This document shows positions 1-22,172 of a stretch of DNA of 39,620 nucleotides, piece after piece. Position 1 is the first letter of the stretch. Every line of letters begins with the position of its first letter. The DNA comes from Prosthecobacter debontii (GTDB lineage: Bacteria > Verrucomicrobiota > Verrucomicrobiia > Chthoniobacterales > Chthoniobacteraceae): positions 1 through 39,620 of the forward strand of contig CAMAUI010000034.1 in assembly GCA_945861385.1 (NCBI GenBank), written 5' to 3'. Both the position numbers and the translations under genes were made by a program. Under the pieces are notes generated by a model. That model saw nothing but the letters and a program-made list of their open reading frames with translations, did not search any database and was not told the origin of the DNA.

Positions 1-1046
1 ACGCCGACCTCGGCGTAGGGCAGGTCCCACTTTTCAAAGATGTCCACCACGGTCTGCTCGTGGCCCTTCTTCACGATGATGAGCATGCGCTCCTGCGACT
101 CGCTCAGCAGCGTCTCGTAAGGCGTCATGCCGGTCTCGCGCTGCGGCACTTTCGCGAGATCGATTTCCACGCCCGTGCCGCCGCGGCTCGCCGTCTCGCA
201 CGTCGAGCACGTGAGGCCCGCCGCGCCCATGTCCTGGATGCCCGCCACCGCGTCGGTCGCGAGCAATTCGAGGCACGCCTCCAGCAGCAGCTTCTCGCGA
301 AAAGGATCGCCGACCTGCACCGCGGGCCGGTCCTGCTTGCTTTCCTCCGTGAGATCGCGCGACGCGAACGCCGCGCCCGCGAGCCCGTCGCGTCCCGTCT
401 CCGCGCCGACATAGAAAACCGGATTGCCCACGCCCTTCGCCGCGCCGCGCGCGATCTGCTCGTGCTTCAGGATGCCGAGGCAGAATACATTCACGAGCGG
501 GTTGCCATTGTAGCTCTCGTCGAAAAACACCTCGCCGCCGATGGTCGGCACGCCGATGCAATTCCCGTAGTGCGCGATGCCGCTCACCACGCCGGCGAAG
601 CGCGAGCGGTTCCACTTGTGCTGCTCCGTGTCGCCGTGGATCGGCCCGAATCGCAGCGAGTCCAGCGAGAATACCGGCCGCGCGCCCATCGTGAAAATGT
701 CGCGGATGATTCCGCCCACGCCCGTCGCCGCGCCCTGAAACGGTTCGATGGCGCTCGGGTGATTGTGCGACTCCATCTTGAACGCCACCGCCCACCCGTC
801 GCCGATGTCAATGACGCCCGCATTTTCCTCGCCCGCCTTCACGAGCACGAGCGGCCCCGTCGTCGGGAACTTCCGCAGCTCGCGCTTCGTGTTCTTGTAG
901 CTGCAATGCTCGCTCCACATCACGGAGAATACGCCTAGCTCCGTGATGTTCGGGTCGCGCCCAAGGATGCCCTGGATGCGGGCATACTCCTCGTCGGTGA
1001 GGCCGTGCTTTGCGATGAGTTCCTTGGTGATGGCGGGCTCGGTCAT
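1..1046 (-). CDS. purL: Phosphoribosylformylglycinamidine synthase subunit PurL (5' part, cut by window edge)
   Basis: ATP-dependent amidation of FGAR to FGAM, step four of de novo purine synthesis, in the cytosol. About 348 N-terminal residues are visible, compared with roughly 740 for stand-alone small-type PurL; the rest lies left of the window. The protein begins [10 protein letters not shown]. Family motifs seen are SEHCSYKN (about residue 45), [20 protein letters not shown] (about 92), GGIIRDIF (about 111) and [13 protein letters not shown] (about 165). The frame is open throughout, so this looks like the functional copy. The ATG at 1046 is chosen because the same MTEPAITKE start is kept in the second copy near 3068. 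No gene lies between it and the divergent toxin-antitoxin operon at 1147. Two partial copies of the same region occur to the right (2611-3068 and about 5025-5278). Identity is certain; the missing 3' part cannot be judged. Confidence 0.96.
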
Positions 1047-1146
1047 GTTGAGAAAGGCGCGCACCTTTTTGGAAATGCACGGGCGCGGCAAGAAAAACGT
1101 CCGCCCAAGAACTTGTCGCCATCGCATCCGCTGTTACCTTTGGCCC

Positions 1147-1371
1147 ATGAGCACCGCCATTCTCAGCGAATTCAACCGCCTCAGCACACCCGAACAGGTG
1201 CAACTCGTCGAAGACCTGTGGGACGTGATTTTCGCCAAGGGCGACGGCCCCGCGCTCACCGACGCGCAGCGCGCCATGCTCGACCGCGAGAGCGCGGAAA
1301 TCGCCCGCAACCCCGGCCACGGCATCACCCTCGCCGAACTCAAAGCGCAAATCCTCGGCGGTCGGAAATAA
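1147..1371 (+). CDS. Addiction-module antitoxin, TIGR02574-like
   Basis: A 74-residue protein starting MSTAILSEFNRLSTPEQVQL. Its layout (helical N-terminus with PEQVQLVEDLWDVI, a middle alanine/arginine/glutamate helix, and a C-terminal ITLAELKAQI tail) matches the family annotated as putative addiction module component, the antitoxins that pair with RelE/ParE toxins. It would bind and neutralise the toxin encoded directly downstream and probably repress the operon. The ATG at 1147 follows a 100-base gap from the divergent purL. Its TAA stop at 1369-1371 touches the toxin ATG at 1372, so the pair is almost certainly co-translated. The assignment rests on motif resemblance and on the neighbouring toxin. 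Confidence 0.82.
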   Translation: MSTAILSEFNRLSTPEQVQLVEDLWDVIFAKGDGPALTDAQRAMLDRESAEIARNPGHGITLAELKAQILGGRK

Positions 1372-1677
1372 ATGGCCCTCATCATCCGCCGTCGGGCCGC
1401 ATTCGCAGTCGTCGAGATTGTCGCCCGCTACGAAAGCGAACAGCCGGGCCTCGGCCTTGAGTTCATGAGCTGTTTCGAGGCCGCGTGTGCCGCCATCGAG
1501 CGCGAGCCTTTTGCCAGCGCGCCGCACTACCGCGAATTCCGCCGCCGCAACCTCCGCCGCTTCCCCTACACGCTCCACTACCTCGTCGCGGGTGAAAATA
1601 TCATCGTCTCCCTCATCTTCCACGCGAGCCGCGACCCGGCGGAACTCTACTCCCGACTCGAAGACGACGGGCCATAG
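1372..1677 (+). CDS. RelE/ParE-family toxin
   Basis: A 101-residue basic protein. It shows the RelE/ParE layout: an N-terminal strand (ALIIRRRA), a helix pair around YESEQPGLGLEFMSCFEAAC, then strands ending with RRFPYTLHYLVAGENIIVSL and HASRDP near the C-terminus, the usual place for toxin active-site residues. Family members are ribosome-dependent mRNA endonucleases (RelE) or gyrase poisons (ParE); the sequence alone does not decide which. It starts immediately after the antitoxin stop with zero spacing. The frame is intact, so the pair may be functional. It sits between purL and a second purL 5' fragment, in an accessory segment that has clearly been rearranged. Confidence 0.85.
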   Translation: MALIIRRRAAFAVVEIVARYESEQPGLGLEFMSCFEAACAAIEREPFASAPHYREFRRRNLRRFPYTLHYLVAGENIIVSLIFHASRDPAELYSRLEDDGP

Positions 1678-1680
1678 AAA

Positions 1681-1850
1681 TCACAGGACTCCACAGCCTT
1701 TGCCGCCAGCACCACATTCGTATCGAGCACCGCGCGCAGCATCACTGCTTCCCGGCGAGTTGCGCCGTGATGCGGTCATACACCTCGAAGAACTCGCGAA
1801 ACGCCTCCTCGCGCGAAACGCCCCGCGCCTTCGCAGCCTCGGCCTCCGCG
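1681..1850 (-). pseudogene. Remnant of a VapBC-type operon: antitoxin tail plus PIN-toxin N-terminus
   Basis: Read on the minus strand, about 35 residues up to the stop at 1742-1744 (ARGVSREEAFREFFEVYD, then RITAQLAGKQ) look like the C-terminal end of a small antitoxin. The stop overlaps an ATG at 1740-1742 that opens MLRAVLDTNVVLAAKA, the first strand of a PIN domain with its metal-binding aspartate in LDTNVVL. The TGATG overlap is the classic coupling of such pairs. Both partners are truncated: the toxin frame loses PIN similarity by about 1681 and stops shortly after, inside the end of the RelE/ParE gene, and the antitoxin loses its N-terminus at the TPR fragment near 1850. I infer a second toxin-antitoxin pair destroyed by deletion. 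The short length limits certainty. Confidence 0.6.
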
Positions 1851-2461
1851 AGAAAGAACAACGAACGGTGCTGGCCATCAAATCGAGCAGCCTCGGCCCC
1901 GAACATCTGGAAACGCTCAAAATCCGGAACAACCTCGCGCTCGCCTTGAATGGCCATGGCAAGTGCGCCGAAGCGGAGCAGGAGCATCGGATCGTGAGCG
2001 CCGTGCGAACGCGCATCCTCGGCCCCGATCATCCCGATACGCTTCGGAGCCGTGGGAACCTAGCTTCCGCGCTTTTCGGACAGGACAGGCATGCCGAGGC
2101 GGAGAAGGAGTTCCGCGCCGCACTGGCAGCAGAGGAACGCGTCCTTGGTTCCGAACACCCCAGTGCGCTGAACAACCGAAGCAACCTTTCAGCGGTTCTT
2201 GGCACTCAGGGCAAATACGCCGAGGCGGAGAAGGAAGATAGGATGGTGCTGGCCATCCGGGAACGCATCCTCCGCCCCGGGCACTCCGATATATTCATAT
2301 CGTGTTACAATCTCGCCCAAAACTTGGAGCGCCAGAAAAAGCAGGGCGAGGCATTGCAGTTTGCACGGCGAGCATTGGAGGGAATGATGAAAGCCCTCGG
2401 CGATGGGCACTCATACACGCAAAATGCAAAGGCCATGGTCAACCGGCTGGAAAAGCCCTGA
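1851..2461 (+). pseudogene. TPR-repeat (kinesin-light-chain type) protein, 5'-truncated fragment
   Basis: About 200 residues of regular 42-residue repeats: four full units with the pattern VLxxxERxLGPEHPxTLxx, xNLAxAL and xAEAEKExR, plus a partial fifth ending in MVNRLEKP at the stop at 2459-2461. This is the TPR_10/TPR_12 form found in bacterial signalling and NB-ARC/CHAT-type proteins, where it forms the C-terminal protein-binding part. The frame continues upstream only into sequence that reads as an antitoxin remnant on the other strand, and no start codon with a ribosome site precedes the repeats; a GTG at 1868 is the only in-frame candidate near the boundary. I therefore read it as the tail of a longer gene whose effector-bearing 5' part was lost. 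It could still be expressed as a short TPR protein. Confidence 0.6.
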
Positions 2462-2610
2462 GCGCCTCACCCCTTCCCCCGCCCTGCCGCGACACCGTCG
2501 CCGCTGCCACGGGGGTGAAGTCGCCGTTCGGCGCGTCGTCCTCGTAGAATTGCAGCCGGTATTCGCGGGCTTCGGAAGCGCAGAGGACAGACGAACTATC
2601 GGCGCTCGTC
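2439..2610 (-). other. Unidentified in-frame tail joined to the purL copy-2 fragment
   Basis: Where the purL similarity ends near 2611, the minus-strand frame continues through sequence I do not recognise, including [20 protein letters not shown], and stops at 2439-2441. The stretch reads like ordinary protein rather than random high-G+C sequence and may be a scrap of another gene captured at the break. Its plus-strand side contains no convincing gene. The TPR fragment ends at 2461, just inside this block. No function is proposed. Confidence 0.35.
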
Positions 2611-3068
2611 GCGCCCGCGAAGTGCGAGCGGTTCCACTTGTGCTGCTCGGTGTCGCCATGGATCGGCCCGAAGCGCAGCGAGTCCAGCGAGAACACCGGC
2701 CGCGCGCCCATCGTGAAAATGTCGCGGATGATCCCCCCCACGCCCGTCGCCGCGCCCTGGAACGGCTCGATGGCGCTCGGATGATTGTGCGACTCCATCT
2801 TGAACGCCACCGCCCACCCGTCGCCGATGTCAATCACGCCCGCATTCTCCTCGCCCGCCTTCACCAGCACGAGCGGCCCCGTCGTCGGGAACTTCCGCAG
2901 CTCGCGCTTGGTGTTCTTGTAGCTGCAATGCTCGCTCCACAACACCGAGAACACGCCCAGTTCCGTGATGTTCGGGTCGCGCCCGAGGATTCCCTGGATG
3001 CGGGCATACTCCTCGTCGGTGAGGCCGTGCTTTGCGATGATTTCCTTGGTGATGGCTGGCTCGGTCAT
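2611..3068 (-). pseudogene. purL: Duplicate purL 5' fragment (copy 2), with leader
   Basis: Starting at the ATG at 3066-3068, this reads [20 protein letters not shown] and follows PurL residue for residue to about residue 152 (KWNRSHFAG). Similarity to the true gene stops abruptly near 2611. Upstream similarity continues for about 50 bases into the leader (around 3070-3120, matching 1048-1100). The amino-acid changes I noticed are conservative (for example L10I and M43L), while many third codon positions differ, so the fragment diverged mainly at silent sites. The frame stays open for another 57 codons of unrelated sequence to a stop at 2439-2441. An ATP-dependent enzyme cannot be made from this piece, so I call it a pseudogene. 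Alternatively it could be the displaced 5' end of an older purL. Confidence 0.88.
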
Positions 3069-3195
3069 TGTGTTCAAAAGGTCGCGACCTTTGGGAAAAG
3101 CACGCGCACTTGCAAGGCGGACGTGCGAAGACACCCACCCGCCCCACGCAAAATCCACGGCATGCTCACACAAGTTGAAGACGCTGCCTGAACGC

Positions 3196-4149
3196 TTAGC
3201 AAAAGTTACTGTCGAGACGTGAAAGGAAACCGGGGAGTTCGTAAGCTACATCAAGGACAAACCACAGGCTGGAGTCTTCCTCGTCATATTCCCTCAAGCA
3301 GTGACGAAGGATTCTTGATTTCTCATTTGCAAGTTGACGGTTGAAGTCGGAGCGACGACGGGCTTCGCGTGATGTGATGATCACCGCATCAATCAAACAC
3401 TGCTGCTTCAACCAATCAGACACCACGAGTTGAACATCACGATCAATTTCCCCGAAAAGCGACAAGGCAAGCACGTTGACTTCGTTCGCTGTGCTCTTTC
3501 GGAATTTCGGAAGAACCTCTTCTGTGCAGAATCGTAAAAACGAGGACTCGTTAAACTTTCGAGCGTGCGGACGTGCATGTCGCACGGCATCGGACACGAG
3601 ACGCTTTACTTCGAGGTTCACCTGCAAATTTGCGCTTGGAACATGGAAGGACCAATCAACGTCCTTCTTCGAATCGCTCCGCAAGCGAACTCCACGGCGG
3701 ATGTTTTGCAAACCACACCAACGGGAAAGCCACCAGACTTCCTCCAAAGCACTCAAATGCTGCGTCGGGTTTTGCAACGCAGCGCGGAGTTTTTTGTCGG
3801 CCAGCCAAAAATTGGGAATGATCGTTCGCCCAAGCTCGCAGACACGGGAAAAGAACTGAAGATGGCCACGGTCAATGCCTGTTCCACCGAACCACTGAAT
3901 TTTGTTCTCAAACGGATTTTCAGCGTTGTTCACGCTGCATCCAGTATCGCCAAAATGATACTCGGCCAAAGGAGCGCCCCTCTCAGAATCGGGAAATGGG
4001 TAGGGCTGGGCAGAAAGGCGGAATGTCTCAAAACCTATGAGATTGATATCCTCGGCGAGTATCGCGGCTCTGCGGCGTGCCGCAGCATCATCGAGCGAAC
4101 CGAGTCTCAAGCAGCGTTCGATATCGGCAGCATGAACAGTCACAGTCAT
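3196..4149 (-). CDS. Hypothetical protein with possible PD-(D/E)XK nuclease motif
   Basis: A 317-residue soluble protein of no family I recognise. The middle contains DVDWSF followed about 15 residues later by LEVKR (about residues 164-185). That spacing of an acidic residue and an E-x-K on a strand resembles the PD-(D/E)XK nuclease core. The N-terminus has an aromatic-rich part ([19 protein letters not shown]) and a [11 protein letters not shown] helix. There is no signal peptide or membrane segment. Base composition is visibly lower in G+C than all neighbours and codon third positions are more mixed, which suggests recent acquisition. It lies alone between purL copy 2 and the VapBC pair. 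A short inverted repeat (cagtat/atactg, 4154-4176) precedes its ATG. A restriction-type or defence role is only a possibility. Confidence 0.6.
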
Positions 4150-4153
4150 GGTT

Positions 4154-4176
4154 CAGTATTCTTTAGCCACATACTG
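4154..4176. promoter_or_regulatory. Small inverted repeat upstream of the 3196-4149 gene
   Basis: Arms cagtat (4154-4159) and atactg (4171-4176) are separated by 11 bases and lie 5 bases upstream of the start codon of the minus-strand gene at 4149. The position fits an operator or a leader hairpin. Six-base arms can arise by chance, so this is tentative. Confidence 0.25.
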
Positions 4177-4256
4177 AAAACGGAAAGAGCGGAGCGAGAG
4201 TTATCGAACCCAGGATTCTAGAGCCGAAGGACAAAGCATTTGCACAGTGCCCCGCG

Positions 4257-4285
4257 TTGACGCCCCGCGCAGGGGCGTGCATCTT
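4257..4285 (+). promoter_or_regulatory. Candidate promoter with internal operator palindrome for the VapBC pair
   Basis: A -35-like ttgacg (4257-4262) and a weak -10-like catctt (4280-4285) are 17 bases apart. The spacer is largely filled by a perfect inverted repeat, acgcccc (4260-4266), gcgca, ggggcgt (4272-4278). A palindrome between the promoter boxes just ahead of an antitoxin ATG (4292) is where autorepressing antitoxins usually bind. The -10 match is poor and the leader would be very short. Confidence 0.4.
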
Positions 4286-4291
4286 CGCGCC

Positions 4292-4564
4292 ATGAGCACA
4301 ATTCTCGAAGCGGATGAGACGGGCGCACTACGCTTGCCGGCTTCGTTGCTGCCGCATCCGGGGCCGCATCGGCGCTATCGCGTGGCGGCGGAGGGCGGGC
4401 AGGTGGTGGTGGATGAGGCGGAGCCTGCGCCGCCGCAGGCTGCGGTGGAGTCGCACCGGGCGTGGCTGGAGAGGCTGCAGCAGGTGCGCGAGCGCAATGT
4501 GACGGGGAAGCAGGGCACGCCGCTCCAGCAAATCTTCGACGAAATTCGCGAAGATCGCCGCTGA
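4292..4564 (+). CDS. vapB: VapB-type (AbrB-like) antitoxin
   Basis: A 90-residue protein beginning MSTILEADETGALRLPASLL. The N-terminal half (EADETGALRLPASLL, then RYRVAAEGGQVVVDE) has the strand pattern of a swapped-hairpin AbrB/MazE-like DNA-binding domain. The C-terminal half is helical and charged (AWLERLQQVRERNVTG, then QIFDEIRED), as expected for a toxin-wrapping tail. It would neutralise the PIN RNase encoded 2 bases downstream and repress the operon through the palindrome at 4260-4278. The ATG at 4292 is preferred to an upstream in-frame ATG at 4247 because the latter would add a basic extension lying over the promoter. Gene order and spacing support the call more strongly than the sequence of the antitoxin itself. 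Confidence 0.78.
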   Translation: MSTILEADETGALRLPASLLPHPGPHRRYRVAAEGGQVVVDEAEPAPPQAAVESHRAWLERLQQVRERNVTGKQGTPLQQIFDEIREDRR

Positions 4565-4566
4565 CG

Positions 4567-4998
4567 ATGAGCTATTGGGATTCGTCGGCGCTGGTGAAGC
4601 TCTATGTGAAGGAGGCGGATTCCGCGCAATTTGATGCGCTGGCGCTTCTCGGACCGGTGGTGACTGGCATGCTGGCGCTGCATGAAGCGAGGACCGTGTT
4701 TCGTCGGCTTGAAGCGGAGGGGATGCTTCCACACGGCCAGGGCACGCCGCTGTTTGCACAGCTCACGGGTGACGTGGCTGCGGGCAAAATCCAGATGCAG
4801 ACGGAAACTGACATGGTGCGCGGAAAATTTGGCGAGGTGCTGGAAGCGTGTTTTTCGCAGACACTGCCCGTTTTCATCCGCACGAACGACGCGCTGCACA
4901 TCGCATCGGCTCTCATCGCTGGCGAAAAGGAATTCATCACCGCCGATGGTCGGCAACGTGCTGCCGCGATGCTCATGGGACTCGTCGTGCTTCCGTAG
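4567..4998 (+). CDS. vapC: VapC-type PIN-domain ribonuclease toxin
   Basis: A 143-residue PIN-domain protein with the full acidic set: D5 in YWDSSALVKLY, E40 in LALHEARTVF, D108 in RTNDALHIASAL and D127 in FITADGRQ. These residues bind Mg2+/Mn2+ in the family, whose members cleave tRNA, rRNA or mRNA when not held by the antitoxin. Its length is normal for VapC. The ATG is 2 bases after the antitoxin TGA, so translation is coupled. The catalytic residues and frame are intact, so it should be active if expressed. The cellular RNA target cannot be read from the sequence. It lies between two purL fragments in the accessory segment. Confidence 0.9.
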   Translation: MSYWDSSALVKLYVKEADSAQFDALALLGPVVTGMLALHEARTVFRRLEAEGMLPHGQGTPLFAQLTGDVAAGKIQMQTETDMVRGKFGEVLEACFSQTLPVFIRTNDALHIASALIAGEKEFITADGRQRAAAMLMGLVVLP

Positions 4999-5024
4999 GC
5001 GCGTCCGCCATTCCACGACAGCCG

Positions 5025-5278
5025 CCGCCCATCACGGTAGCCGTTCATTTTTTCCGGAAGAAAGACACACCCTGTGCGACGAGGGCGTCGCAGCCACGGG
5101 TCGGCACACCGATGCAATTCCCGCAGTGCGCGATTCCGCTCACCACGTCGGCGCAGCGTGAGCGGTGGGGAACGTCACAGGCTGGAAGCACTGTGCCACT
5201 TTCGGCCCGACGCGCAGCGAATCCTGCGAGGACACCGTCCGCGCGCCCATCGTGAAAATGTCGCGGCGAAGTCCGCCT
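5025..5278 (-). pseudogene. purL: Degenerate purL internal fragment (copy 3)
   Basis: Bases 5099-5278 align with 543-718 of the true purL. Shared runs include the blocks around gatgcaattccc, gccgctcaccac (one difference) and gcgcgcccatcgtgaaaatg, but there are many substitutions and several insertions that break the frame. Weaker similarity continues left to about 5025 (a VF..E..NG pattern matching the [10 protein letters not shown] segment). This corresponds to PurL residues of about 110-180. It is much more decayed than the copy at 2611-3068 and lacks the start region. Its right end meets the stop codon of the next minus-strand gene at 5277. It is non-coding and evidently older than copy 2. 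Confidence 0.78.
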
Positions 5279-5759
5279 ATTTGCCGGTCTTCAGCGCGGT
5301 GAGCACTTTGACCAGGTCGGCGGTCGTGCCGTTGAAGCTCCGCTTTGCGTCATGGGCCTGGATCACGCGCCAGGCGGGGATTTTTGACGCGGGGAGAAGC
5401 TCGGCGAGCAGCCAGGTGTCGGCGGCGTGGATCAATGCGACGGGCTTGCCGAAATCCTCGCCGGTCATGAGGATGAGCGGCTGGTCGGCGGCCATTTTTG
5501 CGATCAGCGCGGCGGGGGCGGCGATTTGCACGCGGAAGGTTTCGCCGACGGGCGCGCCTTTGAGCGTCGCGGTGGTCTTGAGGTCAATCACCCGGTTTTC
5601 GGCGCTGACGGCGGTGACGGTGCCGATGGCCACGGCTTTGACTGCCGCGAAGATTTTTTCGATGGGCATGTCAATGTTGATGACGGCGCGGGTGGGGTGC
5701 GCGGACAGAAAAACAGCTACGATGGCGAGGAGCGTCTTGGCGAATTTGCGGGAAATCAT
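5277..5759 (-). CDS. Small secreted protein sharing a domain with the VCBS protein at 9663
   Basis: A 160-residue protein with a signal peptide (MISRKFAKTLLAIVAVFLSA, cut near PTRA). The mature part reads INIDMPIEKIFAAVKAVAIG, an ENRVIDLKTTATLKGAP segment and ADQPLILMTGEDFG. The same order of elements (start of a strand, a residue pair before VIxxKxxxxLKG, then a hydrophobic strand) is seen at residues of about 27-130 of the secreted VCBS protein at 9663-11414. I infer a shared, unnamed periplasmic domain. It is divergent from the large TPR gene at 5887, with 127 bases between them. Its stop touches the degenerate purL fragment, so its C-terminus might have been altered by that rearrangement. 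Function unknown. Confidence 0.72.
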   Translation of the reverse strand: MISRKFAKTLLAIVAVFLSAHPTRAVINIDMPIEKIFAAVKAVAIGTVTAVSAENRVIDLKTTATLKGAPVGETFRVQIAAPAALIAKMAADQPLILMTGEDFGKPVALIHAADTWLLAELLPASKIPAWRVIQAHDAKRSFNGTTADLVKVLTALKTGK

Positions 5760-5886
5760 GGAGTCTCATAGGCGGGGCGCCGGGCGCATGGCAATCATCG
5801 CGAAATAAAAAGCTACCGTTTCCTCCGAGCCCGCCGATATAAGCAAATTTTTGAGAGCGAACCGCCTCTTTACTTTCACGCCTCGC

Positions 5887-8800
5887 ATGAACTCCAGCCA
5901 TCCAACAATTTCTTTCCTCAGCACCGCGCGTCTCGCAGCCGCAATCCTCGTCGCGCCGATTTTCACGAGCCTGCTGCCCGCGCAGCAACTCTCGCCGGAC
6001 GACGCGGCGGCGGTGGTGCTGAATGCGGGGCGGCGGGCGTACAATGAAAAGCAGTTTCCCGCCGCGGCGGAGCGGTTCCGGGAGTTTCTGAAGGTCGCGC
6101 CGAATCACAAGGACGCGGCGGCGGGTCGCTACGGGCTGGGGCTGGCGCTGCTGGAGGCGGGCGATGTGAAGGGCGCGGTGGAAGCGCTCGTGCAGGCGGC
6201 GGGCGCGGAGTTTCCGGAGCGGCCGCTGGCGCTGTATTTCGCGGGCGCGGCGCATCGGCTCGCGGGGACGCAGGCGATGGCTCAGATCGCGGCGAAGCCG
6301 AATGAGGAGGCGGCGCTGCGGACCGCGGCGGCGGCGAGTTTCGGCGAGGCGGCGAAGTCTTTTCAGCAGGCGGCGGAGATGTTCACGGCGCGGTGGAAAA
6401 AGCCGGAGGGTGAGCCGCCGGCGGTGCTGCCGGTCGAGGGCGAGTGGCTGGTCCGCGCGCGGTGCGATCAGGCGGAGATGCTGCTGCGGACGGGCAGGGC
6501 GAAGGAGGCCGGCGATCTCGCGTGGACGGTGCTGAATGATCCCGCGTGGGCGAAGAGCCGCAACCGCCCGCTGGCGGCGTATCACTTCGGGCACGCGAGT
6601 TTTTTGCAGAAGGAATACGTCCTCGCCGGGCGTGAGCTGAGCCAGCTCGCGCCGTTCGCGCAGGAGTTTGGCGTGCATGCGCGCTATCTGCTCGCGCGCA
6701 CGCATCACCTCAGCGGCGAACTCGCGGAGGCGGGCGTGCAATACAAGGCGGTGCTCGCCGGTTACGAGGAGCGGAAGAAGGCGGCGCAGCCCGCGTTGCA
6801 AAATCCGGCGGCGCTCGTGCCGGAGCAGAAGGCCGCGCTGGAGGCGCTGCTGAATCAGCCGCCGCCGGAGCATGTGGAGCGCACGGAGTTTTACAGCGCG
6901 GTGCTCGCGTTCGACGAAGGGAAGCAGGCGGACGCGGCCACGATGTTCGCGGCGTTCGCGCAGAAGTATCCGAAGTCGCCGCTGCTCGCGGAGGCGCAGT
7001 TCCGCATCGGCGCGTGCAACGTGCAGCTCAAGAAATGGCCTGAGGCCAATGCCGCGCTCGACCCGCTGAAGGAGCATCCGCAGCTCGCCGACCAGGCGCT
7101 GACGTGGCTCGCCCGCGCGAAGATCGGCGCGGCTGATCCGGCGAAACCGGCGGAGTTTGATCCGGCGCTGACCGCCGCGCTCGACCTGCTGCGCCGTGCT
7201 TTGCAAAAGGTGCAGCCGCTCGCCGCCACCGATCCCGATGCGAAGCTCCGCCGCGCGGGCATCCTCATGGAACTCGCCGACACGGCCGTGCTCGCGAAGC
7301 AGTTTCCCGAGGCGGTGACGAACTACGATCTCGTCATCAACGAGAAGCTCGACCGCGCCGAGGAAGCCATGCAGCGGCAGGTCACGGTGCGGCATCTCGC
7401 CGGCCAGCATGCCGAGGCGGAAGCGGCGGCGGCGCGCTTCGAGCAGACGTATCCGGCGAGCACGCTGCTGCCGATGGTGCTATTCCGCGCGGCGGAGAGC
7501 GCCTACCTGCGCGCGGTGAAAACCGCCGACCTCAACCAGCAAAAGGCGGTGCTCGGCGAGGCCGTCACCCGCTACAAGCGCGTGGTGCGGAAGTATCCCG
7601 AATTCCCGCACATCAACACGGCGCGCCACGGCCTTGCGACCGCGCTCTACCGCCTCGGCAACTTCACCGAGGCCGCGCTCACTTTCGCCACCATCCCCGA
7701 CCCCGACCGCTCCGGCGATCTCGCCGACGCGTCGTATCTCCACGCCGATAGCCTGATGCGCGGTTTCCCGGCGGAAACCGACGACGCGATCCAGGCCGCG
7801 CGTTTCATCCAGCAGGCGGAGCAGGCGGCGAAGCTGCTTGAAGTTTTCACCGGCGCGCAGCCGCAAAGCCCGCAGGCCGCGGACGCGCTGCTCAAGCTCG
7901 GCTACTGCCAGCAGCGCATCGGCACGCTCCTCGCCGCGCCCGCCGACCGCACGAAAGCGTTCACCGCCGCGCGCGACACCTACGACAAGGCGATGAAGCT
8001 CACCGACAAGGAGCCCGTGCGCTCGGTCGCCGTCTTCGAGCTGGCGAAATGCCAGGCGCTCCTCGGCGATGCGGTCGCCTCCGCGGCTTCGTTCGCACAG
8101 TTCCAAAATGCGCCGCTCAACGCCACGCCGAACGCGCCGCTCGCACTGCTCCGGCTCTCGGTCCTCCTTCGCGCGCAGAACAAGGCGGCGGAGGCGGTGA
8201 ACATCATGACGGCGTGCCGCGCGCAGCACGAGGGCAGGCTCGCCGCCGATCTGGCGCGCGTGCACTGGGTGCCGATGATCCAATACGAACACGCCGTGGC
8301 GCTGAAGGAATCCGGCAAGCTGCCCGAGGCGCGCGCGCAGTTCGAAGCACTGGCGAAAGCCTTCCATGGCAAGCCAGAGGGGCTGAACGCCGAATGGCGC
8401 CTGAGCCAGTGCAAACGCGAGGAGACCGCCGCGCTCATCGCCACGGCGCGCACCGCCGCGGCCAACCCCGGCGTGAATCCCGAGCAGTTCGCCGCGGCTT
8501 TGAAAGCTCTCGAGACACAGACCGACACGCTGCGTGATTTCGCCGATGGCTTCCTCGTCCAGGCCGAGCAGCTCCGTCCGCTGGCGGGCGGCTCCGACGC
8601 GCATCTGCGCATGCTTTACGAGGCGGCGTGGTCCTTCCGCCTGATCTCGCATGTGGAAACTGAAACCGCGAAACTCATCGCGCAGCGCCCGCCCGTGGTC
8701 CCCGCGCCTGCCCCGGCGGGCACGCCCGCGAAAGCGCCCGTCGCAGCCCCGGCGCCCGCGCCCGTCGCTCGTCCGCCCGCGGAGAAACGCGCCGTCGAGG

Positions 8801-9660
8801 TTTACCAAAAGCTCATCGCAGTCGCGCCGGCATCGTCCGTGGCCACGCAGGCGCGCAGCGAACTGGCGGAGATTCTCACCGCCCGCGGCGACACCGACAC
8901 CGCCACCGAGCTGCTCACGGAATCGCTCCAGCACACACCCGCCGGGGAGATTCCCGGCCGCATCCGCCTCGGCCTCGCCGCCACGAATATCGCGCGGAAA
9001 GCTCCCGCGCAGGCGCTCGCAAACGTCCAACCGCTCCTCGCCACGCCCGACAGTCCCGACGGCATTGAGGCGCGCGCGGTCGTCGGCGAAGTGTTCATCC
9101 AGCAGCAGAACTGGCCCAAGGCCATCGAGCAGTTGCTGCCGTTCCGCGACGACGGAAAACTCCACAACATCGCCGGGGTGAGCGACCGCGCGGTGCTGCG
9201 CCTCGCTTTCGCCTACTCGCAGAGCGGCCAGTGGGACCCCGCGCGGCAGGCGCTGGAAATACTGCTGCAACGCTACCCGCAGAGCCCGTGGATCAACGAG
9301 GCGCGCTACGCCATCGGCTGGGTCTGGCAGACCCAGAAAAACTACGACAACGCCGTGGCGTCGTACACCGAAGTGACCAAGCGCACGACCGCGGAAATCG
9401 CGGCGAAGGCGCAGTTGCAGATCGGCCTGTGCCGGCTGGAGCAGAAGCGCTGGGAGGAAGCCGCCGCCGCACTCGTCGCGGTGACCGTGACCTACGCCTA
9501 CCCGGAGCTGGTCGCCGCCGCCCGCTGCGAAGCGGCCCGCGCGCATCTGGAACTTCTCAAGCCCGCCGAGGCGAAAAAGCAGTGGCAGCAGGTGCTCAAC
9601 GATCACCCGAAAAGCCAGTGGGCCGACGTGGCGCGGAAAGGTTTGGAGGGATTGAAATAG
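5887..9660 (+). CDS. Large exported TPR-repeat protein
   Basis: A 1257-residue protein with an N-terminal signal sequence (TARLAAAILVAPIFTSLLPA, then QQLSPDD). The rest is mostly helical tetratricopeptide units, for example AYNEKQFPAAAERFREFLKV near residue 50, YPEFPHINTARHGLATALYR, and a late run with YPQSPWINEARYAIGWVWQT. A Pro-Ala linker around residues 938-960 (PAPAPAGTPAKAPV) divides a long N-terminal array from a shorter C-terminal one. The architecture resembles YbgF/BamD-like and other envelope scaffold proteins but is far longer. The ATG at 5887 is chosen because it gives a clean signal peptide; an in-frame start at 5851 would add 12 residues ahead of it. Its stop is followed 2 bases later by the VCBS gene, so it heads the operon running to 20742. 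It is probably a periplasmic or outer-membrane-facing scaffold; partners are unknown. Confidence 0.85.
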   Translation: MNSSHPTISFLSTARLAAAILVAPIFTSLLPAQQLSPDDAAAVVLNAGRRAYNEKQFPAAAERFREFLKVAPNHKDAAAGRYGLGLALLEAGDVKGAVEALVQAAGAEFPERPLALYFAGAAHRLAGTQAMAQIAAKPNEEAALRTAAAASFGEAAKSFQQAAEMFTARWKKPEGEPPAVLPVEGEWLVRARCDQAEMLLRTGRAKEAGDLAWTVLNDPAWAKSRNRPLAAYHFGHASFLQKEYVLAGRELSQLAPFAQEFGVHARYLLARTHHLSGELAEAGVQYKAVLAGYEERKKAAQPALQNPAALVPEQKAALEALLNQPPPEHVERTEFYSAVLAFDEGKQADAATMFAAFAQKYPKSPLLAEAQFRIGACNVQLKKWPEANAALDPLKEHPQLADQALTWLARAKIGAADPAKPAEFDPALTAALDLLRRALQKVQPLAATDPDAKLRRAGILMELADTAVLAKQFPEAVTNYDLVINEKLDRAEEAMQRQVTVRHLAGQHAEAEAAAARFEQTYPASTLLPMVLFRAAESAYLRAVKTADLNQQKAVLGEAVTRYKRVVRKYPEFPHINTARHGLATALYRLGNFTEAALTFATIPDPDRSGDLADASYLHADSLMRGFPAETDDAIQAARFIQQAEQAAKLLEVFTGAQPQSPQAADALLKLGYCQQRIGTLLAAPADRTKAFTAARDTYDKAMKLTDKEPVRSVAVFELAKCQALLGDAVASAASFAQFQNAPLNATPNAPLALLRLSVLLRAQNKAAEAVNIMTACRAQHEGRLAADLARVHWVPMIQYEHAVALKESGKLPEARAQFEALAKAFHGKPEGLNAEWRLSQCKREETAALIATARTAAANPGVNPEQFAAALKALETQTDTLRDFADGFLVQAEQLRPLAGGSDAHLRMLYEAAWSFRLISHVETETAKLIAQRPPVVPAPAPAGTPAKAPVAAPAPAPVARPPAEKRAVEVYQKLIAVAPASSVATQARSELAEILTARGDTDTATELLTESLQHTPAGEIPGRIRLGLAATNIARKAPAQALANVQPLLATPDSPDGIEARAVVGEVFIQQQNWPKAIEQLLPFRDDGKLHNIAGVSDRAVLRLAFAYSQSGQWDPARQALEILLQRYPQSPWINEARYAIGWVWQTQKNYDNAVASYTEVTKRTTAEIAAKAQLQIGLCRLEQKRWEEAAAALVAVTVTYAYPELVAAARCEAARAHLELLKPAEAKKQWQQVLNDHPKSQWADVARKGLEGLK

Positions 9661-9662
9661 TC

Positions 9663-11414
9663 ATGCATCTCGCGAACACGATTTCCAAACAGCTCCGGCG
9701 TCTCGCCGCGCTCCTGCTCCTTCTCGCCTGCCTTTCCCTCCCCGCCCGCGCCTACGTCGAGGTTCCCTATTCCCTCGGCAGAGTGATCGCCGAATCCACG
9801 AACATCTTCGTCATTCGCGTCCAGAGTGTGGATCGCGCGGCAAACGTCATCACTTACTCCAAGGTCGCCGACCTCAAAGGCACGCACCCCACGCAGACGC
9901 TGAAGCACAACATCGGGCGCGGCGGTTTTCACCCGCGCGAATGGCAGACCATCATGGCGTGGGCCGAGGTCGGGCAGACCGCCGTGATGTTTCACAACGG
10001 CGGCTTGTCGGAGACCTGCATCAACGATTATTGGTATCAGTGTGGTGGAGGCGGCGAGGGGTGGAACATGGTTCACGCCGAGCCGTTTCTGCTGCGCAGC
10101 TTTGCCGGCAAACCGGAGAAGCTCATCGGCGTCGTGACGGCCATCCTCTCAGGGCAGGAGGTCATCGTCACCGCGATGGTGGATGGCGACAAAAACGCCA
10201 TTCAGATCCGGACCGCGCGCGTGCAGCGGATCAAGGCCAGCCTTGCGCTCCAGGACTACAACCCCGCGCGTGATTTCACCGGCTGGGGCGCTGAGGAAAT
10301 GCGCCAGCTCGCGGGCATGCCGGGCTTTCAGCAATACGCCGCGCTCAACCGCACCAGCCCCGGCGCGGCGGGCGTCGCTCCGGCGGATTTCGACGGCGAC
10401 GGCAAGCCAGACCTCTGCCTTTTCGGCAGCGCGAAAGTGGTGCTGCTGCAAAACGCGGGCGGCTCGTTCAATGAAGTCGCGCTGCCCGTGACCCATGGCG
10501 CGCGCGCGGCGTCGTGGGCCGACTACAACGGCGATGGCAAACCCGACCTGCTGCTCGCCACGCCGTCGGGCGCGCGGCTTTTCACCAACGCGGGCGCGGC
10601 CACTTTCAAGGACGACACCGCCAGCCTGCCGGTCGCAGCTTACAGCCATCTCACCGCCGCCGCGTGGCTCGACCAGAACGGCGACGGCAAACCCGACATT
10701 CTGCTCGCAGACGGCTTCAACGGGCTGCGCCTGCTGCTGAATGCGAGCGCCGCCGGTGCGCCGAAGTTCGAGGATGTCTCAGACAAAGTCGGGCTCGGGC
10801 GCGACGGCATCGCGAGCCGGCTGAAAGGCGACCGCCTCACGCTCGCCGACGTGGATGGCGACGGGCGCACCGACTTTCTCTACAGCGCCGGCAACGGCGT
10901 GCTCGTGCTGAACAGGAAGGAAGGTTTCGCCGAGGCGAAGGACTCCGGCCTCGCGTTTCGCGCCGGACAGATCACGCCCGTCTTCGGCGACTTCGACGGC
11001 GACAAAGCGCCCGACCTGTTCGTGCCGCAGACCGGCGGGAGCAAACTGTTTCGCAACGACGGCAAAGGCCGCTTCACCGACATCACCGCGAAGTCCGGCG
11101 CGCTCGCCGAGTTCACCGGCGACGCCACGTGCGCCGTGTGGACCGACTTCAACAACCGCGGCCAGCTCGACCTCGTCGTCGGCTGCCTGCGCGGCCCGAA
11201 CCGCTACTTCCGCCACACCGGCAACGGCACCTTCGCTGACGCCACCGAGGACATCGGCTTCCTCCAGCGCATCTTCAACACCCGCGCCCTCGCCGCGATT
11301 GACCTCAACAAAGACGGCGTGCTCGACATCATCCTCAACAACGAAGGCCAGGAATCCTCCGCCCTCATCGGCGACCCGCAGCGCCTGGTGGCACCGGCGG
11401 TGGCAAAGCAATGA
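9663..11414 (+). CDS. Secreted VCBS/FG-GAP repeat protein, seven repeats
   Basis: A 583-residue protein with a signal peptide (LRRLAALLLLLACLSLPARA). Residues of about 27-130 form a domain also found in the protein at 5277-5759. From about residue 240 there are seven calcium-loop repeats: DFDGDGKPD, DYNGDGKPD, DQNGDGKPD, DVDGDGRTD, DFDGDKAPD, DFNNRGQLD and DLNKDGVLD, spaced about 45-60 residues apart. Seven units fit a closed seven-bladed integrin-like propeller; the sixth lacks the usual acidic spacing and may not bind calcium. The start at 9663 lies 2 bases after the TPR gene stop, and its TGA overlaps an ATG at 11411. It is predicted to be extracytoplasmic. No catalytic motif was seen; it may bind ligand or protein partners with the neighbouring propellers. 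Confidence 0.88.
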   Translation: MHLANTISKQLRRLAALLLLLACLSLPARAYVEVPYSLGRVIAESTNIFVIRVQSVDRAANVITYSKVADLKGTHPTQTLKHNIGRGGFHPREWQTIMAWAEVGQTAVMFHNGGLSETCINDYWYQCGGGGEGWNMVHAEPFLLRSFAGKPEKLIGVVTAILSGQEVIVTAMVDGDKNAIQIRTARVQRIKASLALQDYNPARDFTGWGAEEMRQLAGMPGFQQYAALNRTSPGAAGVAPADFDGDGKPDLCLFGSAKVVLLQNAGGSFNEVALPVTHGARAASWADYNGDGKPDLLLATPSGARLFTNAGAATFKDDTASLPVAAYSHLTAAAWLDQNGDGKPDILLADGFNGLRLLLNASAAGAPKFEDVSDKVGLGRDGIASRLKGDRLTLADVDGDGRTDFLYSAGNGVLVLNRKEGFAEAKDSGLAFRAGQITPVFGDFDGDKAPDLFVPQTGGSKLFRNDGKGRFTDITAKSGALAEFTGDATCAVWTDFNNRGQLDLVVGCLRGPNRYFRHTGNGTFADATEDIGFLQRIFNTRALAAIDLNKDGVLDIILNNEGQESSALIGDPQRLVAPAVAKQ

Positions 11415-11500
11415 AACCGCCCGCTAATCCAAATCCAACGCAAAGCGAAGCGCCTGCTGCATGCGCGCCATCGCCTCACCGGGACGGGGGATCATCGAGT

Positions 11501-13558
11501 ATGTTCATCACTTGTCCGCGCATCGCCCTCGCCCTCATCGCCATTTTCCTCGGCATCCTCCCACCCGCCTCCGCCGACTGGACCACCAGCCGCGGCAACC
11601 TCCAGCGCACCGGAAACATTGACGCCCAGCCCGGCCCGAAAAAGCCGCGCGTGCTGTGGGCCTACAAGGCGGCGCAACACTTCATCGCTTCGCCGGTGCC
11701 GGACGCGGGCACGCTGTATCTCCCGGGGCTCGGCGCATTCAACACGCCGGCGTTTCACGCTTTCTCCATCGACGCCGACATCGCCGAGCGCGCGCTGTGG
11801 TCAAAGGCCGGGCCGTTCATCAAGCTCCCCTCCGTCTCCGCGCCCGCGGTAACCGGCGGCTTCGTGATTTTCGGCGACGGCATGCACCAGACCGACGGCG
11901 CGACGCTCTACTGCATCCGCGCGGAAAATGGCCGGCCCGTCTGGCAGTTTTCGGTGCCGGGAAAACTCGTCCACATGGAAGGCTCGCCGACCGTCGAGAA
12001 GGATCGCGTTTACATCGGCGCGGGCGACGCGGGCGTGATCTGCGTGGAGTTGAAAAAGCTCACGCTCGACGGCCAGGAATTGGATCCGGCGGCGGCGCAG
12101 AAACTCCTCGAAGCGCGCTGGGCCGAGCTGACTGCGAAGTATGCCGAGGCGAAAAAGAAGGACCCGGAATTTGCCATTCCGCCGACCGAGGACGCGCTGC
12201 CGAAGCCCGCGCCGAAGCTCGTCTGGCAGCAGGGCAAAGGCACGCTGCACGTGGATGCCCCGGTCGCGGTGGCCGGCGAGCGCGTGCTCGTGGCGTCGGC
12301 CTACATTGATGACGACAAGGTGGGCAAACGCGCGCTGGTCTGCCTCGCGGCGGGCGACGGCAAGGTGCTGTGGGAGGTGCCGCTCGAGGGAAAATACAAC
12401 CCGTGGGCCGGGCCGACCGTGACCGGCAACACGGTGCTCGCCGGCTGCAGCAGCATCCGCTTTGACCGCAAAGGAATCCCCACCGCGAAGGGCGAAGTGC
12501 TCGCGTTGAACATCGAGAACGGCCAGGTGCTCTGGCGCAAGGAACTGCCCGGAGGCGTGCTCTCGGCGGTCGCGGTGAGCGGCGATCTCGCGGTGGCCAC
12601 GGCCACCGATGGCACGGTGCGCGCGTGGGCCGTGACGAACGGCGCGGAGAAGTGGAGCTACAACGCGGGCGCACCGTTTTTCGCCGGACCGGCGGTCGCG
12701 GGCGGCAGCGTGTATGCCGCCGATCTCAAAGGCATCGTCCACGCGATCAGCCTCGCCGACGGCAAGGCGGAGTGGACTTTCAACGTCGCCACCGATCCCG
12801 CCGTGCAAGGGCCGGGCATGTTCTTCGGCTCGCCCGTCGTGCATGGCGGCGAACTTTTTCTCGCGACGACAAACATCGACGGCGACCAACCGAACCAGCC
12901 GTCGGTCGTGGTGTGTCTCTCCGACAAAGCGGCAGGCGCGACCGCGGCGAACGCCGTGATCACCGTGGACAAGGAGAACCGGCGGATCAGCATCCCGGCG
13001 AAAATCGCGCCGCGAAAACTGCCGAACCTCAAGGATGTCTATCCGCTGGAAGTGCTCGCCACTTTCCCCACCCCGCGCGGACAGAAGGCGCACGAAACCA
13101 TCGTGACCTTCGAGGCCAGACCGAGTGAGATCCACAAGGCGCTCGAACAGCTCGGCCTCAAACCCGGCAAGCCGGCCAAAGGCGAAAACGCCAACGCCAC
13201 CGGCCCCGAGGTGACCGTCGCGCTCGAACTGCCCGGCGTCGCCGGCAAGACGCGCCTCGTGCCCATCGAACCCGCGATGATTGACATACGCACGGGCAAA
13301 AAAATGCCGCCGCTGAAATGGCATTTCACCGGCTCGACCATCCGCCAGCCCGATCCCGAAAAACCCGCGAAGGTCTATGGCGCCGACCTCAGCGGCACGC
13401 TCGCCACGATCTATCCGGTGACGGATGAAACCGTCCTGCAATCGAATCTGACCCTCGCCGAGACCTCGCTCCTGCGGCTCGAAATCAACAGCAACGTCCT
13501 GCCCGCCGAAGGCACGCCGGTGACTTTGCGGATCGAAGTGAAAAGAACGTCCCAATGA
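11501..13558 (+). CDS. Exported PQQ-like beta-propeller protein
   Basis: A 685-residue protein with a signal peptide (MFITCPRIALALIAIFLGIL, cut near PASA). The mature protein opens DWTTSRGNLQRTGN, the common start of PQQ-like (BamB-type) propellers, followed by repeated blades with tryptophan-docking patterns: YCIRAENGRPVWQFSVPG, LVCLAAGDGKVLWEVPLEG, LALNIENGQVLWRKELPGG, AWAVTNGAEKWSYNAG and HAISLADGKAEWTFNVA. About 180 C-terminal residues form a separate non-propeller part. No cofactor-binding residues can be claimed, so it may be a structural propeller. Two starts are possible: ATG 11411 overlaps the previous stop (ATGA), while ATG 11501 gives a proper signal peptide and is preferred. Its TGA overlaps the lipoprotein ATG at 13555. 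It is paralogous to the propeller at 14620. Confidence 0.87.
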   Translation: MFITCPRIALALIAIFLGILPPASADWTTSRGNLQRTGNIDAQPGPKKPRVLWAYKAAQHFIASPVPDAGTLYLPGLGAFNTPAFHAFSIDADIAERALWSKAGPFIKLPSVSAPAVTGGFVIFGDGMHQTDGATLYCIRAENGRPVWQFSVPGKLVHMEGSPTVEKDRVYIGAGDAGVICVELKKLTLDGQELDPAAAQKLLEARWAELTAKYAEAKKKDPEFAIPPTEDALPKPAPKLVWQQGKGTLHVDAPVAVAGERVLVASAYIDDDKVGKRALVCLAAGDGKVLWEVPLEGKYNPWAGPTVTGNTVLAGCSSIRFDRKGIPTAKGEVLALNIENGQVLWRKELPGGVLSAVAVSGDLAVATATDGTVRAWAVTNGAEKWSYNAGAPFFAGPAVAGGSVYAADLKGIVHAISLADGKAEWTFNVATDPAVQGPGMFFGSPVVHGGELFLATTNIDGDQPNQPSVVVCLSDKAAGATAANAVITVDKENRRISIPAKIAPRKLPNLKDVYPLEVLATFPTPRGQKAHETIVTFEARPSEIHKALEQLGLKPGKPAKGENANATGPEVTVALELPGVAGKTRLVPIEPAMIDIRTGKKMPPLKWHFTGSTIRQPDPEKPAKVYGADLSGTLATIYPVTDETVLQSNLTLAETSLLRLEINSNVLPAEGTPVTLRIEVKRTSQ

Positions 13559-14289
13559 ACAGACGCCCCGCCCTTATCGCCATCATCGCCATGAGCCTCG
13601 CCGCGTGCGGTGACGCGGACAGCAAACCTGCCGTCGCGCTGGACGCAAAACCCGCCCCGGAGGCAAAACCCGCCACAGACGCAAAGCCCACCCCAGCCCC
13701 ACCTACGCTCAGTGAACTGCTGGAACCAACGCTCTCCGCGCCACCTCTCACCGCTGCCACTCCTTCCGCACAGTGGAATCCCGCCACCATATTTCCCGTG
13801 CCCTTCCGCCCGTGGCTGCCACCCGGGGAGTCACTGGAAAAGCCCCGCGTCGTTCCCGGCGATCAGCGCATGCCCAACACCGCGCCCTTTTCCCTCCCGA
13901 CAGCGCCTCTTCCCTCGCCGGACGTTGCGCTCCCCGCGCCGCTCGTGCTGCCCGCCACCGCCCGCGAATTTTTCATCGGGCCGAACCCCGCGCTCATCAC
14001 CGTCTGGATCGCCACCAGTCCCGCGCCGGAGATGCGCGGACGCCCGCCCGCCTGGGACCGCCCGCGGTTCGCGACCGACCCGACCGATGGCATCATCCGC
14101 ACCGCACCGCTCGCCACCCCCACCGGCCTGCGCGAAAAATCGCCGCCCTTCCTGCGCGTGTCGCTCCCCGATCCCTTCGAGCAAATCAACATCGCCGAAC
14201 TCCGCCCGCCGCCGCCCGAAACGGACGCGCCCGTCGCCTCGTTTTACCGCCCGCCGGTTTCGCTGCCCGTCGCTCCCGCGGCGAAATAG
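13555..14289 (+). CDS. Proline-rich lipoprotein, hypothetical
   Basis: A 244-residue protein. It begins MNRRPALIAIIAMSLAACGD, a type II signal peptide with lipobox LAAC (Cys18), so it should be lipidated and membrane-anchored. An Ala/Pro/Lys-rich stretch with repeated DAKP and AKPA elements follows (about residues 22-45), typical of a flexible spacer. The remainder is unusually rich in proline (FPVPFRPWLPPGESLEKP and ELRPPPPETDAPVASF) and I recognise no domain. It overlaps the preceding propeller gene by ATGA and is followed by the REP-like element. It may tether or space the propeller proteins at the membrane; this is inference from position only. Confidence 0.75.
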   Translation: MNRRPALIAIIAMSLAACGDADSKPAVALDAKPAPEAKPATDAKPTPAPPTLSELLEPTLSAPPLTAATPSAQWNPATIFPVPFRPWLPPGESLEKPRVVPGDQRMPNTAPFSLPTAPLPSPDVALPAPLVLPATAREFFIGPNPALITVWIATSPAPEMRGRPPAWDRPRFATDPTDGIIRTAPLATPTGLREKSPPFLRVSLPDPFEQINIAELRPPPPETDAPVASFYRPPVSLPVAPAAK

Positions 14290-14349
14290 CGGGCACAACG
14301 CCCGCCTCATCGTTGTGATGCAAAGCGGCACGAATGCGAGGCCAGTTCA

Positions 14350-14578
14350 TCGTCCCGAAGGGACAGCGGAAATTAGCCGGTGGTGGAGCGAGTCCGCGAG
14401 CGGGAACCACCGGGTCTCAGGGAAAGAAAGCATCCGCCCCGGAGGGGCGGCGGAATTCCCCCCGCAGGCTGGCTTCCATCGCCCCTCCGGGTCGAGAACC
14501 TCGGAACGACGCGATCCGGTGGTTGCGCTCGCGGACTCGCTCCACCACCGGCTAATTTCCGTAGTCCCTCCGGGACGA
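14350..14578. repeat. REP-like inverted doublet (BIME-type) inside the operon
   Basis: Two arms of about 63 bases, 14350-14413 and 14516-14578, are near-perfect reverse complements, including a run of more than 35 matching bases. Each arm contains its own hairpin with stem ccggtggt/accaccgg (14377-14384 with 14406-14413; 14516-14523 with 14544-14551). Between them is a further palindrome, ccgcccc-gga-ggggcgg (14434-14450), and a partial mate cgcccctccggg near 14480. Nested hairpins of this sort are typical of REP doublets moved by RAYT transposases. The 330-base gap 14290-14619 otherwise holds no gene. The open frame through it ahead of the next gene appears fortuitous. Confidence 0.85.
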
Positions 14579-14619
14579 CAGATTTCCTGCACATCAACTC
14601 ATCAGACCTGCCGCCTCGC

Positions 14620-19925: not shown

Positions 19926-19926
19926 C

Positions 19927-20742: not shown

Positions 20743-20750
20743 GCACCTGG

Positions 20751-22147: not shown

Positions 22148-22172
22148 CCGCGCTCCTTTTTCAAAGACATCC

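What the first reader, a model, noticed from the sequence alone, without database searches (positions are those of the whole stretch)
1..5278. Three successive purL 5' pieces in one 5-kb stretch: a likely recurrent insertion site
The true purL 5' end (1-1046), a well preserved fragment with its own leader (2611-3068) and a degenerate fragment (about 5025-5278) lie in the same orientation, separated by unrelated accessory genes. A single tandem duplication does not explain foreign cargo between copies in different states of decay. A better fit is an element that inserts at, or recombines through, the 5' end of purL and each time supplies a new 5' end, displacing the old one to the right. I know of no named element with this target in this phylum.
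Basis: partly seen in the sequence, partly recalled or inferred. Interest (0 to 1): 0.8.

Follow-up and report, generated by a model that had tools for sequence, protein, structure and literature searches.

The report
purL pieces beside toxin-antitoxin genes
Three pieces of one purine-synthesis gene lie in a row in a Verrucomicrobiota bacterium; one looks like the recently cut-off end of another version of that gene, and another belongs to a small repeated sequence that mostly sits beside toxin-antitoxin genes at several places in related genomes.

Summary
In detail: purL 5' end (3-1046, minus), F2 (2603-3107, 92% identical) and degenerate F3 (5088-5277, 76%). The single-process reading does not.

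F3 is not a displaced 5' end. It belongs to a repeat with purL-like sequence (about 531-716) behind a shared left end (GCAGCCGTTCATTTTCCC). Seven copies carry the purL part: three in this genome, three in a congener, one in another genus. Six of the seven have a toxin-antitoxin module within about 500 nt. One copy has a clean empty site in two relatives: a 1.25-kb block holding the repeat, a PIN toxin with a small partner gene, and remnants entered between two overlapping genes. How it moves is unknown.

F2 is a recently cut allele: 20 of its 23 differences from this purL are at third codon positions, and it is closer to a sister species' purL. purL is about 95% identical between species whose other compared regions are 67-87% identical, and its neighbours differ. 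I infer recombination anchored in purL that brought a new 5' end and left F2 behind. No recombinase was found among nine ORFs, and none of 70 named purL loci with enough upstream sequence has such a piece. An assembly artefact remains possible for F2.

The parts
3..1046 (-). 5' part of purL (348 codons; rest beyond the contig end)
   Evidence: Pfam FGAR-AT_linker, AIRS, AIRS_C; contig start
1047..1092 (-). purL leader, of the type of G008 and G001
   Evidence: alignment of leaders, read by eye
1147..1371 (+). antitoxin-like protein, putative addiction module component
   Evidence: PF09720, TIGR02574 above cut-off
1372..1677 (+). ParE-like toxin
   Evidence: PF05016 just above cut-off, 23.9 against 23 bits; no NCBIfam hit
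1681..1855 (-). vapB C-terminal piece plus first codons of a vapC, both cut; a like remnant lies in the C15 block
   Evidence: 1705-1852 is 78% identical to L043:9692-9839; intact relative in L176
1856..2461 (+). tetratricopeptide-repeat gene or remnant (frame open 1487-2461, start unclear)
   Evidence: TPR_12, TPR_10
2603..3127 (-). F2: cut 5' piece of a purL allele (ATG ends at 3068) with its leader to about 3127
3196..4149 (-). 317-aa protein, no family found, lower G+C
   Evidence: no plasmid match
4292..4564 (+). probable antitoxin (vapB place; no profile hit; DNA matches in G004 and G031)
4567..4998 (+). PIN-domain toxin (vapC type)
   Evidence: PF01850 above cut-off; no NCBIfam hit
5037..5277 (.). 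F3: copy of the purL-derived repeat; left end 5037-5087 with the shared motif, purL-like 5088-5166 and 5202-5277, non-purL palindrome-like stretch 5167-5201
5277..5759 (-). neighbouring gene; in G005 its ortholog lies beside another gene (ABC-type ATPase by eye), not purL

Best explanation
Two processes meet here. (1) F3 is a copy of a short dispersed repeat that contains purL-derived sequence (about 531-716). It was probably carried to new sites inside blocks that also hold toxin-antitoxin modules; one such block entered a clean site elsewhere in this genome. Shown: the family, its common left end, its company with toxin-antitoxin genes, one empty site. Inferred: that F3 came in the same way; the enzyme is unknown. 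(2) purL itself is exchanged between species of this genus. An incoming purL allele, with different DNA upstream (a ParE-type module and debris), recombined with the resident gene by homology inside purL and joined without homology at the other end, leaving the old 5' end (F2) to the right. Shown: F2 was under coding constraint until recently, purL is an island of identity between species, and its neighbours differ. Inferred: the one-sided recombination and its direction.
For: Repeat family: copies with the purL part in G000 (C34, C15, C87), G004 (three) and G031, with the same left end. F3 and the C15 copy align through a non-purL stretch that stands in place of purL 608-640, so copies descend from a derived ancestor. 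Toxin-antitoxin genes within about 500 nt of 6 of 7 copies. The genome has 19 PF01850 hits, and 3 of 3 local copies lie within 125 nt of one; chance about 4e-8 by a rough formula. The PIN toxins are distant from one another or show no detectable similarity. Empty site for the C15 block in G004 and G005. Control 20 kb: no such fragments. F2: 23 of 447 differences from own purL, 20 at third positions, dN/dS about 0.04; 15 of 447 from G008; leader of the G004/G005 type, own leader of the G008/G001 type. purL dS 0.15-0.18 for own-G004 and own-G008 against tgt 0.54 and 0.72; G008-G004 95.1% over 2285 nt that coincide with purL plus leader. Neighbours of purL differ.
Against: One of seven copies (G004 C101:33.9 kb) has no recognised toxin-antitoxin gene beside it. 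Two further places (C3, C87:5220) keep the left end, but their purL part does not exceed shuffles (75 and 22 of 300 as good). In other genomes the left-end string is not clearly above its control (G004: 7 hits, control 4). One empty site only; no transposase, integrase or terminal inverted repeat found. No break in divergence is visible within the part of purL held (3.6% and 3.3% to G008), and the rest of purL is missing. F2 is not nearest to all relatives of its leader type (26 of 447 differences from G005). purL exchange rests on one control gene with dS plus lower identities of a few other regions, not on a genome-wide comparison. Draft genome of 174 contigs.
Confidence: 0.55

Rival explanations
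1. Hitchhiking debris: DNA pieces (purL, toxin-antitoxin, TPR) are captured at breaks by end joining, and toxin-antitoxin regions are merely tolerant places where such pieces survive.
For: Blocks are mosaics of cut genes; the C15 junctions show no terminal repeats by eye.
Against: The shared left end of seven copies and the shared stretch of F3 and C15 point to copying of one derived unit; 20 kb of control sequence gave no such pieces.
Confidence: 0.25
2. A site-specific element targets the purL 5' end and supplies a new 5' end at each insertion (first reader; SXT-like logic).
For: F2 is a former working allele; two leader types in the genus.
Against: No recombinase in nine ORFs; F3 lacks the 5' end and lies in a dispersed family; no second piece in 80 named loci (70 with at least 2.1 kb upstream) or 7 relatives.
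Confidence: 0.1
3. Assembly or binning artefact: F2 comes from a sister strain and was joined wrongly.
For: F2 is 95.8% identical to G008 purL; draft assembly, contig ends inside purL.
Against: The left junction of F2 lies inside purL next to unrelated sequence, without an obvious shared stretch (by eye). F3 and the other copies lie in different contigs and genomes and do not depend on it.
Confidence: 0.15
4. A cassette-like mobility system: the purL-derived repeat is the recombination end of toxin-antitoxin cassettes.
For: The left end lies about 35-45 nt after the toxin stop in three copies whose toxins show no detectable similarity; in C87 a left end and a full copy in the same direction flank a row of MazF-type, PIN_3-like (below cut-off) and PIN-type genes.
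Against: In other copies the module lies to the right or in the opposite direction; no conserved fold; no recombinase known; the left one of the C87 pair keeps only the left end.
Confidence: 0.12
5. Simple tandem duplication of the purL 5' end followed by insertions and decay.
For: Same orientation, within 5 kb.
Against: F2 is closer to G008 purL than to the own purL and changed mostly at third positions; F3 belongs to a dispersed family.
Confidence: 0.04

Closest known systems
Integrative elements that enter the 5' end of a host gene and supply a new one (SXT/R391 at prfC; recalled, not looked up)
   Same: A new 5' end with its own leader and an older 5' end left at the far side of cargo would look alike
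   Different: No recombinase found, no core repeat shown, not seen in the other genomes examined; F3 does not fit
Homology-facilitated illegitimate recombination after DNA uptake (recalled, not looked up)
   Same: One homologous anchor (purL), one junction without homology, foreign cargo added
   Different: Not demonstrated; direction and junctions are inferred
Integron gene cassettes with toxin-antitoxin cargo (recalled)
   Same: Small toxin-antitoxin modules near a repeated site; this genus also has rows of a 76-bp repeat, one near a partial integron-integrase match far below its cut-off
   Different: The purL repeat shows no conserved hairpin beyond pairs inherent in purL, and no copy of the 76-bp repeat was found in the window among the matches listed
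MITE or REP-like dispersed repeats (recalled)
   Same: Short, dispersed, no own enzyme seen
   Different: Contains sequence of a housekeeping gene; no terminal inverted repeat found; target duplication only suggestive (CCGCTGCG/CCGCTGTG)

Membership tests
Site-specific integrative element | Integrase or recombinase gene in or next to the insert | tested here: not met
   No recombinase family among nine ORFs of 3-5759 (Pfam); other ORFs there were not profiled
Site-specific integrative element | Same site used in related genomes | tested here: not met
   No second purL piece upstream in 80 named loci, 70 of them with at least 2.1 kb upstream, nor in 7 relatives with about 9 kb
Integron cassette | attC site that folds as a hairpin | tested here: not met
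   RNAalifold on seven copies: 10 pairs, one with a change on both sides, covariation term not favourable
Integron cassette | Integron integrase in the genome | tested here: inconclusive
   One 108-aa frame on C9 matches TIGR02249 over 46 residues, 30 bits against a cut-off of 265; the genome was not searched for integrases
MITE | Terminal inverted repeats | tested here: not met
   No pair at the ends of 5037-5277 among the 25 longest of 54 inverted pairs shown; ends also compared by eye
MITE | Target site duplication | tested here: inconclusive
   CCGCTGCG and CCGCTGTG at the two ends of the C15 block, one site only
vapBC type II toxin-antitoxin (cargo) | PIN-domain toxin after a small antitoxin gene | tested here: met
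   PF01850 above cut-off for the toxins at F3, C15, C87, G004 C101 and C106; PIN_3 below cut-off at G031; the antitoxins gave no profile hits
Tandem duplication | Copies closest to each other | tested here: not met
   F2-G008 15 differences, F2-own 23 of 447

The most novel reading that the evidence does not exclude
A repeat born from a housekeeping gene (purL) serves as the end or docking site of an unrecognised system that spreads toxin-antitoxin modules as small blocks through genomes of this Verrucomicrobiota family, and purL itself travels between species, so that working purL alleles, cut alleles and old purL repeats accumulate near toxin-antitoxin genes.
Probability: 0.13. Interest if true: 0.78.

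Novelty: new variant of a known kind. Interest (0 to 1): 0.45.

Why it matters
How solitary toxin-antitoxin modules get from place to place without a visible transposase is an open question. A repeat that marks such blocks, with one clean empty site, gives a handle to find more insertions and to date them. A housekeeping gene that is exchanged between species and sits in different surroundings is also unusual and can be tested by comparing complete genomes.

Tried and rejected
Single tandem duplication: rejected by the substitution pattern of F2. Site-specific integration at purL: no recombinase among nine ORFs, no recurrence. Structured RNA: no Rfam match at the repeats in window, L042, L043 and L047 at gathering thresholds, no convincing conserved fold. 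Integron attC: the 76-bp repeat found in C87 is a different family. Empty site for the C87 row: homology to relatives resumes only near the start of tgt, and the left flank gave no relative, so no clean site. Synteny upstream of purL as proof of insertion: not decisive, since flanks differ on both sides in most genomes compared. Defence-system profiles: none for ten proteins. Plasmid relatives of the 317-aa protein: none. Literature: five searches of the held library listed nothing on purL as a target or on purL-derived repeats. From two papers (PMC4377027, PMC4687380) I saw only the passages with the terms, where 'purl' was a web address; the rest I saw as search listings.

That the left part of the repeat also descends from purL (about window 499-530) is my reading of the alignment, not a test; the model's left positions match some relatives' purLs only in part. 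A loose gapped alignment extends some copies to purL 738-841, but BLAST does not, and I did not use it.

Dropped before counts: C3 and C87:5220 were left out of the seven copies because their purL part is not above shuffles; three matches of 28-37 nt (G015, G053, G020; E 1e-5 to 6e-4) were not followed up; weak matches (E above 2e-4) were not followed up.
Full report
Setting. The window is the start of contig C34 of a 4.29-Mb draft genome with 174 contigs (G000). The named genomes with the most similar purL are MAGs labelled Spartobacteria, Chthoniobacter, Chthoniobacterales and other Verrucomicrobia. purL runs off the contig start; only its first 348 codons are held.

Observation. Three purL pieces lie in the same orientation: 3-1046, 2603-3107 (92%) and 5088-5277 (76%). 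F2 matches purL residues 1-163 without a stop. F3 ends at purL position 716 and has no 5' end. Between them lie a ParE-type module (1147-1677), a cut vapB/vapC remnant (1681-1855), TPR sequence, a 317-aa protein in lower G+C DNA (3196-4149) and a PIN-type module (4292-4998).

F3 is part of a repeat family. A search of the own genome and 56 relatives with window 1-1100 found, besides the purL genes and F2/F3, ten shorter matches: six from about 522-660 (G000 C87 and C15; G004 C101 twice and C106; G031 C287), one from 678-716 in the same C15 block, and three of 28-37 nt that may be chance (at most 7 candidates per genome were scored, so pieces may be missed). Printed side by side, F3 and the six share a left stretch not evidently like purL: GCAGCCGTTCATTTTCCC, then an A-rich stretch, then purL from about 531. 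With a model of these seven copies (A2, R1), 40 genomes of the family gave full-length copies only in G000 (three), G004 (three) and G031 (one); the other matches with E up to 2e-9 lie at purL genes; weaker ones were not followed up, and 92 candidates per genome were scored. Two more places in G000 (C87:5220, C3:35.5 kb) have the left end, but their purL part is not above shuffles (22 and 75 of 300 as good), so I count them as left ends only. F3 and the C15 copy align through a palindrome-like stretch that stands instead of purL 608-640, so they descend from one changed copy rather than from purL twice. A string search for the left end with up to 2 mismatches gave 11 hits in G000 against 0 for the reversed control, but no clear excess in G004 (7 against 4); by eye five of the 11 belong to the family.

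Company. In three copies the left end lies about 35-45 nt after the stop of a PIN toxin (F3, C87:7204, G004 C101:2.9 kb). In C15 a PIN toxin gene ends 64 nt from the end of the purL match. In G004 C106 a small gene and a PIN toxin follow, starting 478 nt from the left end; in G031 a stretch 86% identical to the window's antitoxin starts 265 nt from the left end, followed by a PIN_3-like frame below cut-off. G004 C101:33.9 kb has none recognised. So 6 of 7. The genome has 19 PF01850 hits, 16 over the cut-off; the three local copies lie 69, 85 and 124 nt from one. The chance under uniform placement is about 4e-8, a rough figure that leaves out PIN_3 and other toxins. Of the five PIN toxins, one pair is 48% identical over 62 residues, two pairs are 25-30%, the rest show nothing. 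In C87 the left end at 5220 and the copy at 7204, in the same direction, flank a MazF-type toxin, a PIN_3-like frame (below cut-off) and a PIN toxin.

An empty site. The C15 copy lies between a glycosyltransferase and a GH130 gene. In G004 and G005 these genes abut, the stop of one overlapping the start of the other; in G000 a block of about 1.25 kb lies between them. The block holds a like vapB/vapC remnant as the window (78% over 148 nt), the purL repeat, a PIN toxin with a small partner gene, and a further purL piece (678-716). In G001, G006 and G008 the distance between the matched parts of the two genes (311-312 nt) leaves no room for the block. An eight-base near-repeat (CCGCTGCG/CCGCTGTG) at the two ends may be a target duplication; one site cannot decide. 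So here purL pieces and toxin-antitoxin genes arrived together.

Control. Twenty kb of the same window (5760-25759) searched against the own genome gave paralogues at 66-69% and one palindromic repeat, no short high-identity coding fragments; 40 of 236 candidates were scored, so weak pieces may be missed.

F2 is a cut allele. Over 447 nt F2 differs from the own purL at 23 sites, 20 of them third codon positions, 3 amino acids; from G008 at 15 (13 third positions), G004 at 19, G005 at 26. It therefore evolved as a working gene until recently and did not decay beside the own purL. Its leader resembles that of G004 and G005; the own leader resembles that of G008 and G001; G005 has the protein start of G001 with the other leader type (by eye).

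purL is exchanged. G008 and G004 are 95.1% identical over 2285 nt that coincide with purL and its leader, without adjacent collinear flanks (a few pieces of 42-400 nt match further downstream); G004-G005 94.8% over 2316 nt. Between G008 and G005, identity is 64-73% in the 3' flank, 88-98% in purL, and 28% beyond the leader. tgt has dS 0.54 (own-G004) and 0.72 (own-G008), purL 0.15-0.18; for the distant G009 and G007 the two genes differ far less (purL 0.49-0.80, tgt 0.84-1.10). Other regions of 300 nt or more compared between G000 and G001, G004, G005, G006 and G008 are 67-87% identical, a small and biased sample. The right flank of the window (gene 5277 onward) matches other contigs than those with purL in G005, G001 and G008, and the neighbour of purL in G008 lies in G000 on C7 without purL beside it. 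Contigs are short, so 'different neighbours' holds for the stretches held.

Mechanism. Most likely, (1) F3 was brought by a toxin-antitoxin block of the kind seen in C15; (2) incoming DNA with a sister-type purL recombined inside purL and joined without homology on the other side, leaving F2. Step 1 rests on one empty site elsewhere; step 2 is inferred. Which of F2 and the present 5' end is native cannot be told.

For it: F2.

Novelty. I know no named element of this kind. The parts (dispersed repeats, toxin-antitoxin modules, allele exchange) are known kinds; the combination is a new variant.

Noticed in passing
L042:4923-4998 (G000 C87); L185 (G000 C9:1-9000), L186, L187: A repeat of about 76 bp with dozens of matches in the genus; on C9 five copies and on C49 three lie in one direction. 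On C9 a 108-aa frame nearby matches integron integrase TIGR02249 over 46 residues, far below the cut-off. It may be the remains of an integron.
   Followed up: partly
G000 genome, e.g. C1:87977-88089, C7:63701-63813: CACAGGCTGGAAGCCTGTG: 73 matches with up to 2 mismatches, none for the reversed control, many as inverted pairs 94 bp apart; a part of this motif sits inside F3 (5167-5201).
   Followed up: partly
window 14350-14578: Palindromic repeat that matches itself on the other strand and places on C31, C32, C14 and C36 at 72-91%.
   Followed up: no
window 39553-39620: tRNA match cut by the window end (Rfam tRNA); ARAGORN listed none.
   Followed up: no
L042:5220-7320 (G000 C87): Three small toxin-antitoxin-like modules in a row (MazF type, PIN_3-like below cut-off, PIN) between a left end and a copy of the purL repeat, followed by tgt.
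   Followed up: partly
L049:11090-11162 and L051:1719-1791: tRNA-Lys (CTT) directly upstream of purL in G008 and G001; no tRNA in the G000 C7 stretch (L129) that holds the ortholog of the next gene.
   Followed up: no
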